A stretch of 43,170 bases of DNA from Gammaproteobacteria bacterium (lineage in GTDB: Bacteria; Pseudomonadota; Gammaproteobacteria; UWMA-0217), in the NCBI GenBank assembly GCA_026981985.1, contig JALSHZ010000123.1, positions 1 through 43,170 on the forward strand. Direction: 5' to 3'. The translations under genes were made by a program, and so were the position numbers. The notes below the pieces were generated by a model. That model was not told where the DNA came from, ran no database searches, and saw nothing but the letters and a program-made list of their open reading frames with translations. This document shows positions 1-43,170 of the stretch, one piece after another; the first letter of the stretch is position 1; each line of letters begins with the position of its first letter.

Positions 1-35
1 TAGAATGATGATGCTTCTGAGGCAGGGGTTTGAAG

Positions 36-122
36 CTAATCCCTGGATTGCCGAAAAAGCAGGAAAAATACGCAAAAACCCTGTCAAGCTTTTTTTATGG
101 TTTTTTTGCGCTGAGTAGTTAC
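36..122 (+). repeat. Possible degenerate copy or end of the GTAA-type mobile element
   Basis: Bases 111-122 read CTGAGTAGTTAC, identical to the right end of the element at 38701-38842. ATTGCC at 47-52, preceded by a stretch loosely resembling GTAACTGCTCAG, may be a decayed internal left end. Between them, CGCAAAAACC (71-80) pairs with GGTTTTTTTGCG. The conserved TTTACA...TGTAAATGA core of the other copies is missing. The true left end may lie before the window. The rest of bases 1-253 holds no convincing gene. Confidence 0.35.
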
Positions 123-2974: not shown

Positions 2975-3114
2975 AGCCGGGTGACCACGCAGTATGCCGT
3001 CAAGTAACTATTCAGCGACGCAGCCCGCGTAGCGGGCACACACCGAAACATAACGAAATGATACTGAGCCAGCCATTCAATAGCCACCCGGCCACTTGGT
3101 TTTCTTTCCCCTTC

Positions 3115-3262
3115 ACACGCGCCGCTGTCGGGTGCGACTGGAGGGGGCAACCGGCCATGGATGGCCGGTTGAAGCTTGCGCGGCAGGAAGCCGCTCAAGC
3201 TGACCCCGGAAGGCGTGCCCGGCAGCGGAATCAAGCGTGTGTGGGGCGTCCTTTTTTGGGTT
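3115..3262 (+). repeat. About 148-bp repeat module, inverted copy at 14919-15065
   Basis: This segment, which includes the palindromic ACCGGCCATGGATGGCCGGT, is almost identical to the reverse complement of 14919-15065, differing at only a few bases. It lies inside the passenger part of the 3004-3869 insertion. One frame is open in both copies, but sequence beyond the module diverges, so a protein product is unlikely. It belongs to a repeat family rather than a gene. The two inverted copies are 11.6 kb apart. Confidence 0.85.
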
Positions 3263-3490
3263 CCGTTTTTTGGACGAGCAAAAAATGGAACTCGCGCTGT
3301 GCGAGAATACGTTGGAAGAATCGTAGCGTTGAGGAGCGCGAAACCCATACCACCTCGCTTGATATGAATGGTGAGGACAACAAGCGTAAGATCTGGCTTG
3401 TTGGCCTCAATACTTGGAAAGCACGGTGGCATTGTTTCGTGGCCAATCAAGCTTTGCTGCTTCCGCCCTGGCTCTCTGCCACAGCCCCGA

Positions 3491-3522
3491 GTACCTTTTT
3501 GTCAACAGCAACAAAAAGGTAC
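3491..3522. repeat. Stem-loop of the TACCTTTTTG...CAAAAAGGTA type
   Basis: A perfect 12-bp stem, GTACCTTTTTGT with ACAAAAAGGTAC, closes an 8-nt loop. It resembles the two stem-loops at 14888-14921 and 15348-15381 in stem design and in the CAACAGC or CTGTTG-like loop, which indicates one family of intergenic stem-loops. It lies in the passenger region of the 3004-3869 element. Confidence 0.7.
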
Positions 3523-3747
3523 CAAAGCGCCGCTCTCTTGCATCCTGCAATCGCGGCATTCGTACATCCATGTACATCAATGCCGCCCCGATTCCCCGCT
3601 GTCGACTCCAGGGATGGAGGAGCTAGAGCGACGCAGGATGCCAAAGCCGCTTCCTGCGCTTCTCGGGCGGGCAAAGGGGAGAAATCATGGTTGCCAAGCG
3701 ACCGGCTTGGTGGGAAGTTACTTGGAAGCAGGTGGAAAAATAGAGCC

Positions 3748-3869
3748 GTAACTGCTCAGATTGCCGATGAAACGCATCAGATCAAGGCGGGAAATGTGAG
3801 TTTACACATGTAAATGACCATTTCCCAACGCTGAGCTGATGTGTTTCACATGGTGAGCTGAGCAGTTAC
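3748..3869. repeat. 122-bp long-hairpin module (copy 1) upstream of pepA
   Basis: This module is bounded by perfect 12-bp inverted ends, GTAACTGCTCAG and CTGAGCAGTTAC, and can fold along its whole length. TGAAACGCATCAG (3768-3780) pairs with CTGATGTGTTTCA (3836-3848) with one wobble. GGGAAATG pairs with CATTTCCC around the core GTTTACACATGTAAATGA. It aligns end to end with the modules at 38722-38842 and 43062-43170, but its arm segments differ in sequence from theirs. It ends 40 nt before the pepA start codon. Confidence 0.85.
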
Positions 3870-3909
3870 GCCGTCAATAGCATCAAGATGCACAACCCTG
3901 GAAGCAATT

Positions 3910-5406
3910 ATGACCATTGAATACAGCATAAAAACCGGTCGGCCGGAAAAACAACGCTGCGGATGTATTGTTCTGCCCGTTTTCAAGGACGGTAAGCTGA
4001 CCGATATTGCCGAGGCATTCGACAAGCTGACCAGCAATTCGCTCGGCCAGTTCCTCGCCAAAGGCGACTTCAAAGGTGACGCCGGTGAAGTCATGTTTCT
4101 CTACGGCATCTCCCAGGCCGCATCTGACCGCATTTTGCTGGTCGGCGTGGGTGAGCAGGACAAGCTCGGTTTTGCCAACTACAAAAAGGCTGCCTCAGCC
4201 GTAGCAAAACGGCTCGATGAATCTGGCGCCACTGATGCCGCCAACTATCTGGCCACCGTGGCCAGCGACAAACTCACCTTGGCGCAAAAAGTAAGAGAGC
4301 TGGTGCTCAGCACCGAGGATGCGCTCTACAACTTCGATGCCTTTCAAAGCAGCAAGGAAAAGAAGCGCCGCAAGTTCAAACGCATGACCATTTTCGTCAA
4401 CCAGCGCCGCGAAACCAGCACTGGGGAAACGGCAATGACACAAGGCGTCGCCATTGCCGAAGGCATGGCGCTGACCAAAGACCTTGGCAACTATCCACCG
4501 AATATCTGCAATCCGGGCTGGCTCGCATCGCAGGCGCGCAAGCTCGGGCGCAAGCACCGCAAGCTCAAAGTCGAAGTACTCGATGAAAAGCAGATCGAAA
4601 AACTTGGCATGGGTGCGTTTTATGCGGTGAGCAAGGGCAGCAAGGAATCCGGCAAGCTGATCACGATGCAATACAACGGCAGCGGCAAGAAATCCGCCAA
4701 ACCCATCGTGCTGGTCGGCAAAGGCATTACCTTCGACACCGGTGGCATATCTATCAAGCCGTCGGCGAAAATGGATGAAATGAAGTTCGATATGGGCGGC
4801 GCTGCCTCGGTTTTCGGTGTGATGCAGGCTTTGCTGACGCTGGAATTGCCTGTGCACGTCATCGGCGTGGTAGCCGCGGCGGAGAACATGCCCGACGGCA
4901 GTGCCAGCCGACCCGGCGACATCGTCAAAACCCTCTCCGGCCAGACGGTGGAAATCCTCAACACCGATGCCGAAGGCAGACTGGTACTCTGCGACGCCCT
5001 GACCTATATCGGAAAATACAAACCCGAGACCGTCATCGATATCGCTACCCTGACGGGTGCTTGCATCGTCGCACTGGGTCACGTCGCATCCGGCATGCTG
5101 TGCAACAACCGGGAGGTTGGCGATGCGCTGCTCGACGCCAGTCAGTCGATCGACGACCGTATCTGGGAGCTGCCGCTGTGGGATGACTACGCCGAACAGC
5201 TCAAAAGCAATTTCGCCGACATGGCCAATATCGGTTCACCAGGAGCCGGCACGATCACTGCCGCCTCTTTTCTGTCGAAATTTACTGAAGACTATCGTTG
5301 GGCACATCTGGATATTGCCGGCACGGCATGGAAGTCGAACGCCGACAAAGGGGCAACCGGGCGGCCGGTGCCACTGCTGATGGAATTCATCCTCAAACAC
5401 ATATGA
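3910..5406 (+). CDS. pepA: Leucyl aminopeptidase (cytosol aminopeptidase, M17)
   Basis: A cytosolic dizinc/dimanganese exopeptidase that releases N-terminal residues, preferably leucine, from peptides; in E. coli the homologue also binds DNA in Xer recombination and carAB control. The 498-residue length is normal. The N-terminal domain covers about residues 1-165 and the catalytic domain about 185-498. The M17 signature NTDAEGRLVL is present, as are metal-ligand segments KGITFDTGGISIK and MKFDMGGAA. The ATG follows GGAAG by a good distance. It overlaps holC by ATGA. Only 32 nt of native leader separate the start from the target duplication of the 866-bp insertion, so the promoter may now lie within or beyond that element. 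Confidence 0.97.
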   Translation: MTIEYSIKTGRPEKQRCGCIVLPVFKDGKLTDIAEAFDKLTSNSLGQFLAKGDFKGDAGEVMFLYGISQAASDRILLVGVGEQDKLGFANYKKAASAVAKRLDESGATDAANYLATVASDKLTLAQKVRELVLSTEDALYNFDAFQSSKEKKRRKFKRMTIFVNQRRETSTGETAMTQGVAIAEGMALTKDLGNYPPNICNPGWLASQARKLGRKHRKLKVEVLDEKQIEKLGMGAFYAVSKGSKESGKLITMQYNGSGKKSAKPIVLVGKGITFDTGGISIKPSAKMDEMKFDMGGAASVFGVMQALLTLELPVHVIGVVAAAENMPDGSASRPGDIVKTLSGQTVEILNTDAEGRLVLCDALTYIGKYKPETVIDIATLTGACIVALGHVASGMLCNNREVGDALLDASQSIDDRIWELPLWDDYAEQLKSNFADMANIGSPGAGTITAASFLSKFTEDYRWAHLDIAGTAWKSNADKGATGRPVPLLMEFILKHI

Positions 5407-14802: not shown

Positions 14803-14887
14803 GTTGGCTTGTGCTCTGTTGCTGTCACTGAGGTGGGAGCAAGATTCCGTTGGCGTCCTGCGCATTTCGCCCCCTCCCGTGGGGCGA

Positions 14888-14921
14888 GTTACCTTTTTGC
14901 CTACAGCTGCAAAAAGGTAAC
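14888..14921. repeat. Stem-loop with 13-bp perfect stem
   Basis: GTTACCTTTTTGC pairs with GCAAAAAGGTAAC around an 8-nt loop. It adjoins the left inverted repeat of the 14843-15426 element and is followed by a run of seven A. The T-run on the minus strand could make this a terminator for transcription coming from dnaE. Confidence 0.7.
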
Positions 14922-15065
14922 CCAAAAAAAGCCGCCCCACACACGCTTGATTCCACTGCTGGGCACGCCTTCCGGGGTCAGCTTGAGCGGCTTCCTGCCG
15001 CGCAAGCTTCAACCGGCCATCCATGGCCGGTTGCCCCCTCCAGTCGTACCCGGCAGCGGCGCGTG
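14919..15065 (-). repeat. About 147-bp repeat module, inverted copy of 3115-3262
   Basis: Read on the minus strand it matches 3115-3262 nearly base for base, including the ACCGGCCATGGATGGCCGGT palindrome and the GGCGTGCCC stretch. One copy is inside a transposed element and the other inside the 14843-15426 inverted-repeat cluster. Confidence 0.85.
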
Positions 15066-15112
15066 CGAGGGGGAGGCCCGCAGGCTCGCTATCGCATCGC
15101 TCGTATCTTCAT

Positions 15113-15140
15113 GTCATTCCAGCTGGGACGCTGGAATGAC
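15113..15140. repeat. GTCATTCCAGC palindrome
   Basis: GTCATTCCAGC pairs with GCTGGAATGAC (11 bp) around TGGGAC. It resembles the short GTCATTCC-type interspersed palindromes found in many proteobacterial genomes. Confidence 0.6.
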
Positions 15141-15347
15141 GGCATTGAAGCAATGCCGGGCCAAAGGCCGGCGAGCCGTATTATTTCCCCTTTTGCCTGC
15201 CCGAGCATCGCAGGACCAGACGGGATCAGCCCACAGGGGCAGGCCAGGGATGGCCTGAGTCGGTCGCCGCGAAGGGACGCGTCGACCGACCCCCGGCTGG
15301 GCCGAGAAGCGCAGGAAACAGCAGGCAAGTGGGGCGGCGTTTCTTTG

Positions 15348-15381
15348 GTTACTTTCTTGTCGCTGTTGACAAGAAAGTAAC
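15348..15381. repeat. Stem-loop with 14-bp perfect stem
   Basis: GTTACTTTCTTGTC pairs perfectly with GACAAGAAAGTAAC around the loop GCTGTT. It adjoins the right inverted repeat of the 14843-15426 element, mirroring the stem-loop at the left side, though with a different stem sequence. Confidence 0.7.
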
Positions 15382-15503
15382 TCGCCCCACGGGAGGGGGC
15401 GAAACCTGCAGGACGCCAACGGAATCAATCACTCGCTCAAGAGCAGCAACGAAGCCTCCAATCACCATCAGGCTCGCTAACGCATCGCACGCTCCATCAG
15501 CGA

Positions 15504-36632: not shown

Positions 36633-37633
36633 AATCCCGCCTGCTGCGGTTCCTCCTGCCATTCATTGCCATCGTACCGATCTGCACCAGCGCCGGCATC
36701 ATCCAGCGTGGCGATTATCTGCAACGCGAAGACGTGCGCGCATTTATCAACAAAATGCATCAAGAACATGGTGTCTCGGTGCAACGGTTGGAGTCCATTA
36801 TCGCCCAGGCCAGGCAGCAGACCCGGGTGCTGGAGCTGATTGCGAAACCCGCCGAAGGTAAGCCATGGCGCGACTACCGGCCAATCTTCGTCAATGAAAA
36901 GCGTATTGCGGCCGGTGTCGCGTTCTGGAATGACAACGAAAAACTGCTGGAAAATGCTGAAAGCCGCTTTGGTGTGCCGCCGGAAATCATTACTGCGATC
37001 ATCGGTGTCGAAACCTTCTACGGCACCCGCATGGGCGGTTTTCCGGTACTCGACTCACTGGCGACGCTGGGTTTCGACTACCCACCCCGGTCAAAGTTCT
37101 TTAGCAAGGAGCTGGAGCAATTCATTCTCTTCACCCTGGAAGAGAATATGGATCCGTTCTCGCTCAAAGGCTCCTACGCCGGCGCCATGGGCATGGGACA
37201 GTTCATGCCCAGCTCGTACCGCCAATACGCTGTGGACTTCGACCGCGATGGCCAGCGCGATCTGTTCAACAACAGCGCCGACGCCATTGGCAGCGTGGCC
37301 AACTATTTCGCCCGGCACAAATGGCGCCAGGGTGACAAAATCGCAACCCGGGCACAGGTAAAGGGCAGCAAGTACCGCAAGCTCAAGGCCAACGAACGCA
37401 AGCCACGCTACACACTGAAACAGCTGGCAGCAGCCGGCGTAACGCCAGTCTCCAGGCTTTCAGGCAATGAAAAACTCAGCTTTCTGGCCCTCGATGGCAA
37501 CAAAGGCAAGGAATTCTGGCTTGGCCACCACAATTTTTTTGTCATCACCCAGTACAACCATAGCGTAAAATACGCGCTGGCCGTCTATGAACTCAGCGAA
37601 GCAATCAAGGCCCGACGCAACAATGCCCACTGA
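36629..37633 (+). CDS. mltB: Lytic murein transglycosylase B
   Basis: A GH103 lytic transglycosylase that cleaves glycan strands with formation of 1,6-anhydro-MurNAc. It has 334 residues. The N-terminal hydrophobic stretch (about residues 4-20) is a signal peptide; Cys21 follows VPI, a poor lipobox, so unlike E. coli MltB it may be soluble. The catalytic Glu is E128 in GVETFYGTRMGG; GAMGMGQFMPSSY and FDRDGQRDL are typical of the family. It overlaps rodA by 4 nt, the usual place of mltB in this cluster. Confidence 0.95.
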   Translation: MKSRLLRFLLPFIAIVPICTSAGIIQRGDYLQREDVRAFINKMHQEHGVSVQRLESIIAQARQQTRVLELIAKPAEGKPWRDYRPIFVNEKRIAAGVAFWNDNEKLLENAESRFGVPPEIITAIIGVETFYGTRMGGFPVLDSLATLGFDYPPRSKFFSKELEQFILFTLEENMDPFSLKGSYAGAMGMGQFMPSSYRQYAVDFDRDGQRDLFNNSADAIGSVANYFARHKWRQGDKIATRAQVKGSKYRKLKANERKPRYTLKQLAAAGVTPVSRLSGNEKLSFLALDGNKGKEFWLGHHNFFVITQYNHSVKYALAVYELSEAIKARRNNAH

Positions 37634-37664
37634 CCGATACAACCCAACCGAAAACTATCCGCAA

Positions 37665-38678
37665 ATGACCAGCCCCCGATATCTGCTCGTACTCGCGATC
37701 GCCCTGTTGCTCAACGCCTGTGGCACCGCACCGAAACACAAGGTAATCCCCCTTGGCGACCTCGACCTGGATGCCATACCAGATGCCGTACCGCGCTCCG
37801 AGCCACTGAGTCGGTACGGTAATCCGGAGTCCTATGTCGAAGGTGGCCGGCGTTACTGGATCATTCCCAACCCCAAGGGCTATGTGGAGCGCGGCCTTGC
37901 CTCCTGGTACGGACCCAATTTCCATGGTAAGCGCAGCTCCAGCGGCGAACCTTACGATATGTACAAGATGACAGCAGCCCACAAGACCTTGCCGTTGCCA
38001 ACCTATGTGCGGGTGACCAATTTGGAGAACAATCGTAGCGTGGTCGTCAAGATCAATGATCGCGGCCCATTCAAGGATGGCCGCATCCTCGACCTCTCCT
38101 ACGTTGCCGCCGCCAAACTGGAGATCATCAATAACGGTACGGCGACAGTCGAACTGCATGTGCTCGACGAAGGCGTACCGGGTGCCGCGGTAACAGAGGC
38201 CGATGATGAATCTGTCATCACCAGCGGCATTGCTGCAGCTGCACCGCTACCAGTGGAAACCCTGCCGACACCGGCAGACACCGCCGCAGCTGAAGTACCA
38301 CCCGGCTCGGGTTCTGGCCTCTCGGCCGCCGAAGCAGGGCTACCCACACCGGGGGGGCAACCAGCGGTGCCGACGGCCAGCGAGACCTCTGCGGTGCCTG
38401 CCGTCACCCAGCAAGCTGCTGACAACACCACGCCAGCGGCCCAACAAGGCATCTTTATTCAGGTCGGTGCCTTCTCCAACCTGCAAAATGCCGAGCGGGC
38501 AAGGCAGAAGCTGCTCGAAGTACAGCAGCATCCTGTTACAATCTCGCCGGTTCAGGGGCGTTACCAGATGCTTCAGCGTGTGCAGATCGGCCCGTTCGAA
38601 TCGAAAGCCGATGCGGAAAAACTCAAAAGCACGCTGAACGAACTGGGGTTCAAGGGCCACCGGATCATTTCTCGATAG
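37665..38678 (+). CDS. rlpA: RlpA, septal ring lytic transglycosylase with SPOR domain
   Basis: An outer-membrane lipoprotein that cuts denuded glycans at division sites. From ATG 37665 the protein has 337 residues and a lipoprotein signal ending LLLNAC (Cys19). Two earlier in-frame ATGs (37587, 37623) overlap mltB and would put extra polar residues before the signal, so they are less likely. The double-psi barrel starts at RGLASWYGPNFHG. The residues matching the Pseudomonas catalytic set are seen in SSGEPYDM, AAHKTLPL and KINDRGPF. A low-complexity linker rich in Ala and Pro follows, then a C-terminal SPOR domain from about 260 (GIFIQVGAFSNLQNA) for binding denuded peptidoglycan. Confidence 0.94.
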   Translation: MTSPRYLLVLAIALLLNACGTAPKHKVIPLGDLDLDAIPDAVPRSEPLSRYGNPESYVEGGRRYWIIPNPKGYVERGLASWYGPNFHGKRSSSGEPYDMYKMTAAHKTLPLPTYVRVTNLENNRSVVVKINDRGPFKDGRILDLSYVAAAKLEIINNGTATVELHVLDEGVPGAAVTEADDESVITSGIAAAAPLPVETLPTPADTAAAEVPPGSGSGLSAAEAGLPTPGGQPAVPTASETSAVPAVTQQAADNTTPAAQQGIFIQVGAFSNLQNAERARQKLLEVQQHPVTISPVQGRYQMLQRVQIGPFESKADAEKLKSTLNELGFKGHRIISR

Positions 38679-38700
38679 GCAATGCCAACAAAGTTATCTT

Positions 38701-38842
38701 GTAATTACTCAGTATAGTCCCGTAACTGCTCAGATTGCCCCCGTTTTGCGTCAAATCAAGGCGGAAGCGCGCAGTTTACAAGTGTAAATGAGCACTTCCA
38801 ACGCAGAGTTGGCGCAAATAAGGGGGTAAGCTGAGTAGTTAC
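38701..38842. mobile_element. 142-bp miniature element (copy 2) with perfect 8-bp target duplication
   Basis: The ends GTAATTACTCAG and CTGAGTAGTTAC form an inverted pair with one mismatch. The element is flanked by the direct repeat GTTATCTT at 38693-38700 and 38843-38850. After the first 21 nt comes the 121-bp hairpin module (38722-38842), in which CCCGTTTTGCGTCAA pairs with the stretch at 38809-38826. The hairpin module is the same family as at 3748-3869, and its first 109 nt are identical to 43062-43170. GTAA ends with an 8-bp duplication point to IS66-type mobilisation. It lies between rlpA and dacA, 62 nt before the dacA start. Confidence 0.9.
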
Positions 38843-38904
38843 GTTATCTTTTGGCCATGCGTCAATACCTGCGCATGGCTCTTCTTTCATGGAATGAAAC
38901 GATC

Positions 38905-43040: not shown

Positions 43041-43170
43041 GTAACTACTCAGCACAGTCCCGTAACTGCTCAGATTGCCCCCGTTTTGCGTCAAATCAAG
43101 GCGGAAGCGCGCAGTTTACAAGTGTAAATGAGCACTTCCAACGCAGAGTTGGCGCAAATAAGGGGGTAAG
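43041..43170. mobile_element. Miniature element, copy 3, cut by the window edge
   Basis: It starts GTAACTACTCAGCACAGTCCC, then the hairpin module from 43062. The last 109 nt are identical to 38722-38830. The remaining right end (about 12 nt to CTGAGTAGTTAC) lies beyond the window. If it is a complete 142-bp copy, the 8 bases before it (AAATCTGG, 43033-43040) should recur right after position 43182. It stands upstream of the Kef gene in the opposite orientation, relative to the gene, from copies 1 and 2. Confidence 0.88.

What the first reader, a model, noticed from the sequence alone, without database searches (positions are those of the whole stretch)
38693..38850. A family of transposase-less miniature elements with GTAA ends and 8-bp duplications
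Seen: the 142-bp element has near-perfect inverted ends and perfect GTTATCTT flanks; a second insertion (3004-3869) has related ends and perfect GCCGTCAA flanks; a third (43041 onward) is nearly identical to the first. Known: IS66-family elements have ends starting GTAA and make 8-bp duplications. Inference: these are non-autonomous elements moved in trans by an IS66-type transposase. Near identity of copies 2 and 3 suggests recent activity.
Basis: partly seen in the sequence, partly recalled or inferred. Interest (0 to 1): 0.75.

Follow-up and report, generated by a model that had tools for sequence, protein, structure and literature searches.

The report
IS66-driven miniature elements with doubled ends
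The short repeats in this bacterial genome are small DNA parasites with no transposase gene of their own that are very probably moved by an IS66-type jumping gene present in many near-identical copies; unexpectedly, they carry a doubled recognition end and a conserved hairpin body, and long versions carry a known RNA motif of unknown function.

Summary
In detail: 142-bp element 38701-38842 (flanks GTTATCTT), 866-bp element 3004-3869 (flanks GCCGTCAA), and a 98%-identical copy from 43041 cut off by the contig end. The genome holds 241 exact tips (0 in the reversed-pattern control). In the DNA sampled, 37 non-autonomous elements have perfect 8-bp duplications.

The IS66 inference is supported. 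No IS66 transposase is in the assembly, but 49 contig ends stop inside a collapsed, essentially identical element with these tips. One of its ends encodes an IS66 transposase C-terminus. Thirteen of 22 left ends pair with a right end by the same 8-bp flank (0.009 expected). The group matches the ISBst12 group (ISDge4).

Beyond the finding:
- Short elements share a 121-bp hairpin core with covarying stems and constant loops, found in 81 of 369 genomes of the class.
- One end carries two tips 20-22, 31-32 or 52 bp apart; the duplication abuts the outer tip in 29 of 30.
- All nine long elements (818-1008 bp) carry the TwoAYGGAY RNA motif.

The core resembles the ERIC apical hairpin, but that test is inconclusive. 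Verdict: a known kind of element in a new variant, with a hairpin body and doubled end worth testing.

The parts
38693..38700 (.). 8-bp target-site duplication GTTATCTT, left copy
38701..38842 (+). 142-bp miniature element (outer tip, 9-bp spacer, 121-bp hairpin core)
38701..38712 (+). outer tip GTAATTACTCAG; the duplication abuts this tip
38722..38733 (+). inner tip GTAACTGCTCAG, 21 bp inside the outer tip, same orientation
38722..38842 (+). 121-bp imperfect hairpin core with covarying stems and constant internal loops
38831..38842 (-). right tip GTAACTACTCAG (minus strand), single
38843..38850 (.). 8-bp target-site duplication GTTATCTT, right copy
2996..3003 (.). 8-bp duplication GCCGTCAA, left copy
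3004..3869 (+). 866-bp non-autonomous element: one tip, non-coding body, hairpin core at the right end
3144..3207 (+). match to TwoAYGGAY RNA (RF01731, 39.7 bits, gathering 43) inside the 866-bp element
3748..3869 (+). hairpin core of the 866-bp element
3870..3877 (.). 8-bp duplication GCCGTCAA, right copy
43041..43170 (+). third copy, first 130 of 142 bp; cut by the contig end, right flank unknown
1..122 (-). left end of the autonomous IS66-type element, collapsed in the assembly; flank AACAAATC pairs with a right end on contig C21

Best explanation
These are non-autonomous elements (MITEs and longer relatives) moved in trans by an IS66-family, ISBst12-group transposase, which recognises GTAACTRYTCAG tips, joins the element to staggered cuts in new DNA, and leaves 8-bp duplications. 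The helper is still in this genome in at least about 22 nearly identical copies but is missing from the assembly because it collapsed. Shown: the tips, the 8-bp duplications, the collapsed element with the same tips and duplications, its IS66 C-terminus, and full IS66 copies with the same ends and duplications elsewhere. Shown but unexplained: the short elements carry two tips in the same orientation at one end, spaced about two, three or five helical turns, and the duplication sits at the outer tip. Inferred: transposition in trans, and that the doubled tip is a two-site transposase-binding end kept in helical phase.
For: 241 tips vs 0 in control. TSD length exactly 8 in 30 of 92 tip pairs; 37 perfect elements. 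22 left and 27 right contig ends of one near-identical repeat; 13 exact 8-bp pairings, 0.009 expected, none at 9 or 10 bp. The right end encodes an IS66 C-terminus. In relative G086 the matching left end leads into an IS66 transposase (PF03050 5.5e-47, NF033517 6.6e-83). Many full IS66 copies in named genomes have GTAACTAYTCAG ends and exact 8-bp duplications. ISDge4, an ISBst12-group IS66 element seen to transpose, has ends GTGACTACTCAGCA / GTAACTGCTCAGCA, one 449-aa ORF and an 8-bp repeat (PMC12898284). TSD offsets 20, 21, 22, 26, 31, 44 and 52 bp upstream of the inner tip in 29 of 30.
Against: No intact transposase gene is assembled in this genome. No empty site was found for any copy: the joined-flank search gave none, and the syntenic gap in the same-genus genome lacks the element but is too diverged to show a single GTTATCTT. 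Small elements share only the tips with the autonomous element.
Confidence: 0.93

Rival explanations
1. The elements are moved by a transposase of another family with 8-bp duplications (such as ISL3, IS256, IS6 or ISAs1), and the IS66 similarity of the tips is coincidental.
For: Several IS families make 8-bp duplications (general knowledge); no IS66 gene is assembled.
Against: The 12-bp tip is the end of an IS66 element in this genome, in relative G086 and in many other genomes, and of the active ISDge4.
Confidence: 0.03
2. The hairpin core is not just transposon filler but a functional nucleic-acid structure (an RNA hairpin acting on neighbouring transcripts, or an ssDNA fold used in transposition) that selection maintains, with IS66 tips as the vehicle. 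This adds to the best explanation rather than replacing it.
For: 18 of 41 pairs show changes on both sides; 86 doubly changed cells vs 27 in shuffles; slid controls far lower. Unpaired loops TCAAGG and AACG are nearly invariant while stems vary. Model R1 finds it in 81 of 369 genomes. Long-ORF insertions are rarer than at random sites, 15 of 36 vs 898 of 1000.
Against: Template-switch correction within palindromes also produces covarying arms; conserved loops could be transposase or host-factor DNA sites; no expression data.
Confidence: 0.35
3. The doubled tip is a historical accident: one core element landed beside another tip and the composite spread by descent, so the spacing has no functional meaning.
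For: Within this genome the 21/22-bp and 31-bp classes each look like few lineages; core and doubled tip are largely co-inherited.
Against: Spacers differ widely between genomes, yet spacing stays at 20-22, 31-32 or 52 bp; only 1 of 30 duplications is at the inner tip.
Confidence: 0.4

Closest known systems
ISDge4 and the ISBst12 group of the IS66 family (PMC12898284)
   Same: Ends GTRACTRCTCAGC, 8-bp duplication, single transposase ORF in the related full copies found here
   Different: The elements in the window have no transposase, are 121-1008 bp, and the short ones carry a second tip inside one end
Bacterial MITEs such as MITEPye1 (tentatively IS1182-moved, PMC11578231)
   Same: Short, transposase-less, terminal repeats shared with an IS, duplications, long predicted hairpin
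   Different: IS66 tips with 8-bp duplications; hundreds of tips per genome; doubled end; a hairpin core conserved across many families
ERIC repeats of enterobacteria
   Same: Similar size, imperfect palindrome, near-identical apical hairpin (AGYTTACAnnnGTAARTGA)
   Different: ERIC lacks GTAA tips; covariance models give only E 0.1 (whole core) and 0.008 (19-nt apical part), so common descent is not shown
TwoAYGGAY RNA (RF01731), proposed to bind CsrA (PMC4333381)
   Same: 27 matches in this genome; all nine long TSD-bounded elements carry it
   Different: Most matches lie just below Rfam's gathering score; here it sits in a mobile element

Membership tests
IS66 family, ISBst12 group (helper element) | IS66 transposase (PF03050 / NF033517) | tested here: met
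   Own genome: only the C-terminal 37 residues visible, matching NF033517 359-386/387, E 0.0019. Relative G086 with matching left end: PF03050 5.5e-47.
IS66 family, ISBst12 group (helper element) | GTAA-starting terminal inverted repeats | tested here: met
IS66 family, ISBst12 group (helper element) | 8-bp target duplications | tested here: met
   13 of 22 left ends pair with a right end by exact 8 bp; many full copies elsewhere
IS66 family, ISBst12 group (helper element) | Single transposase ORF without tnpA/tnpB | tested here: inconclusive
   Full relatives are 1.5-1.76 kb with one long ORF; the interior of the own-genome element is not assembled
MITE (non-autonomous element) | Short, no transposase gene, ends shared with an autonomous element | tested here: met
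MITE (non-autonomous element) | Transposition in trans by the partner transposase | not testable with these tools
   needs an assay
ERIC | Homology to ERIC over the element | tested here: inconclusive
   R1 best match 11.4 bits, E 0.1; R2 apical 19 nt only, 14.1 bits, E 0.0084; sequence profile within shuffle background
ERIC | ERIC-type termini | tested here: not met
   The two E. coli ERIC loci read here show no GTAACT tips
TwoAYGGAY RNA | Match above Rfam gathering score | tested here: inconclusive
   1 of 27 genome matches at or over 43 bits; window match 39.7 bits; 0 of 14 control genomes

The most novel reading that the evidence does not exclude
A large, class-wide superfamily of structured hairpins with constant internal loops, which includes or is ancestral to ERIC, is spread as cargo by IS66-type transposases that grip a two-site end kept in helical phase; long versions also spread a CsrA-type RNA sponge.
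Probability: 0.15. Interest if true: 0.8.

Novelty: new variant of a known kind. Interest (0 to 1): 0.5.

Why it matters
It assigns a very probable mobiliser to an abundant, widespread family of miniature elements. Papers found by searching the held library for IS66 with MITE did not describe an IS66-moved MITE in the passages read; that search covers open-licence papers only. The doubled end and conserved hairpin give a concrete way to test how IS66 transposases recognise ends, a family described as insufficiently characterised (PMC12898284). If the hairpin is selected, it is a mobile regulatory structure in many bacteria. All nine long elements with duplications carry the orphan TwoAYGGAY motif, so a mobile element is a route by which it can spread.

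Tried and rejected
IS66 Pfam and protein searches of the assembly found nothing; explained by collapse of the repeat at contig ends. Plasmid searches gave nothing for the 142-bp element, and only a 47-bp match next to pglX for the 866-bp region. A genome contigs pattern scan for the own-genome left end found none. Empty sites by joined flanks: none. Synteny in relatives: element absent, flank too diverged for a precise empty site. Nucleotide profile of the core against ERIC: not separable from shuffles. Coding function of the 866-bp body: not pursued further after the alignment showed indels and rearranged modules typical of non-coding sequence. C88 as the mate of the third copy: flanks differ at 1 of 8 bases (AAATCTGG vs AAATCCGG), left open.

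Full report
1. The observation. The 142-bp element lies at 38701-38842 with GTTATCTT on both sides, the 866-bp element at 3004-3869 with GCCGTCAA on both sides, and a third copy starts at 43041. The window is a whole contig (G000:C123), so the third copy is cut by the contig end after 130 bp (98% identical to the first) and its duplication cannot be checked. The 142-bp element sits between the gene for a lytic transglycosylase with a SPOR domain (37587-38678) and a D-Ala-D-Ala carboxypeptidase gene.

2. Not chance. The tip GTAACTRCTCAG occurs 241 times in the 3.35-Mb genome, the reversed pattern 0 times. The 142-bp element has 58 blast matches. Among 92 tip pairs 100-1100 bp apart, 30 have a direct repeat of exactly 8 bp; none has 4-7 or 9 or more. 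With looser tips and more loci there are 37 non-autonomous elements with perfect 8-bp duplications, 121-1008 bp long.

3. The helper. Neither PF03050 nor an IS66 protein query finds a transposase in the assembly. But 22 contig ends carry one sequence with this tip and 27 carry a second one, nearly all 100% identical, and all break 116-127 bp inward: the signature of a repeat longer than the assembler could bridge. Read inward, the second end encodes FCRIRGYLSTCRKQGLSASDALALVFAGKLPHFDLMG and a stop that overlaps the tip. This matches the last residues of NF033517, IS66 transposase. Outside the contig ends, 13 of the 22 left ends share an exact 8-mer with a right end, where 0.009 are expected, and no pair matches at 9 or 10 bp. 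So the collapsed element makes 8-bp duplications. Window positions 1-122 (minus strand) are one of its left ends.

4. Relatives of the helper. In genome G086 a similar left end leads into an IS66 transposase (PF03050 5.5e-47 and NF033517 6.6e-83). A scan of named genomes with that protein gave 80 loci; many complete copies have GTAACTAYTCAG ends with exact 8-bp duplications and lengths of 1.5-1.76 kb. ISDge4 of Deinococcus geothermalis, an ISBst12-group IS66 element shown to transpose, has ends GTGACTACTCAGCA and GTAACTGCTCAGCA, one 449-aa ORF and the 8-bp repeat CCTCGATG (PMC12898284).

5. The doubled end. Most short elements have two tips in the same orientation at one end. In this genome the spacings are 21-22 bp (30 cases) and 31 bp (22); in other genomes 31-32 bp (12 of 13) and 52 bp, with one more at 20 bp. 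Spacer sequences differ. Where an 8-bp duplication is seen, it abuts the outer tip in 29 of 30 elements (offsets 20, 21, 22, 26, 31, 44, 52 bp from the inner tip). Apart from the single 26, these are near multiples of 10.5 bp. Inside the fetched full IS66 copies no second tip was found at these spacings. Counts include related copies, so helical phasing is a suggestion, not a result.

6. The core. The 121-bp core folds into an imperfect hairpin. In 24 diverse copies 18 of 41 pairs show changes on both sides, with 86 doubly changed cells against a shuffled mean of 27, and slid controls are far lower. The unpaired segments TCAAGG and AACG are almost constant while stems vary. A covariance model finds the core in 81 of 369 genomes of the class. 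Some distant matches appear to lack GTAA tips (L317, L318). Palindrome correction could mimic the stem covariation but does not explain the constant loops.

7. ERIC. The apical hairpin resembles that of E. coli ERIC read from two loci. The whole-core model gives 11.4 bits, E 0.1; the broader central model 14.1 bits, E 0.0084, over 19 nt only; a nucleotide profile is within shuffle background. This is a lead, not homology.

8. Long elements. All nine elements of 818-1008 bp with duplications carry a match to TwoAYGGAY RNA. Most matches are just below Rfam's gathering score, and the motif also occurs without tips, as at window 14974-15037. TwoAYGGAY has been proposed to bind CsrA (PMC4333381).

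9. Where they sit. With flanks rejoined, 15 of 36 insertions fall in a long ORF, against 898 of 1000 random sites; this is a crude ORF test but shows avoidance of genes. The syntenic interval in the same-genus genome has no element.

10. Verdict. The kind is known (an IS66-mobilised MITE of the ISBst12 group); the doubled end, the conserved hairpin core and the RNA-bearing long forms make it a new variant. Trans-mobilisation is inferred, not shown.

Noticed in passing
window 14840-15420 (approximate), TwoAYGGAY match 14974-15037 (-): Large intergenic inverted repeat carrying a TwoAYGGAY-like segment that is 94% identical to the 866-bp element over 164 bp but has no GTAA tips, so the motif also exists outside the IS66-type elements.
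   Followed up: partly
window 3603-3649: 47-bp module with a GGA-loop hairpin, 91.5% identical to DNA under the pglX (BREX) annotation on two enterobacterial plasmids; such modules recur as insertions in the long elements.
   Followed up: no
window 4474-4668 (-): Match to Yersinia sRNA Ysr276 (46.3 bits, gathering 100), antisense to the M17 aminopeptidase gene; probably reflects protein-coding conservation.
   Followed up: no
L083 1527-1558: In a same-family genome two element ends face away from an 8-bp sequence (tip, GATGTATT, tip), as expected for adjacent elements sharing one duplication.
   Followed up: no
L317, L318: Hairpins with the same central AG/TGA internal loop but apparently no GTAA tips, hinting that the core exists beyond IS66-type elements.
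   Followed up: partly
L025 around 1460-1624: Tandem arrays of tips at 22-bp spacing (44, 66 and 88 bp) at one end of an element, as if the end were being extended unit by unit.
   Followed up: no
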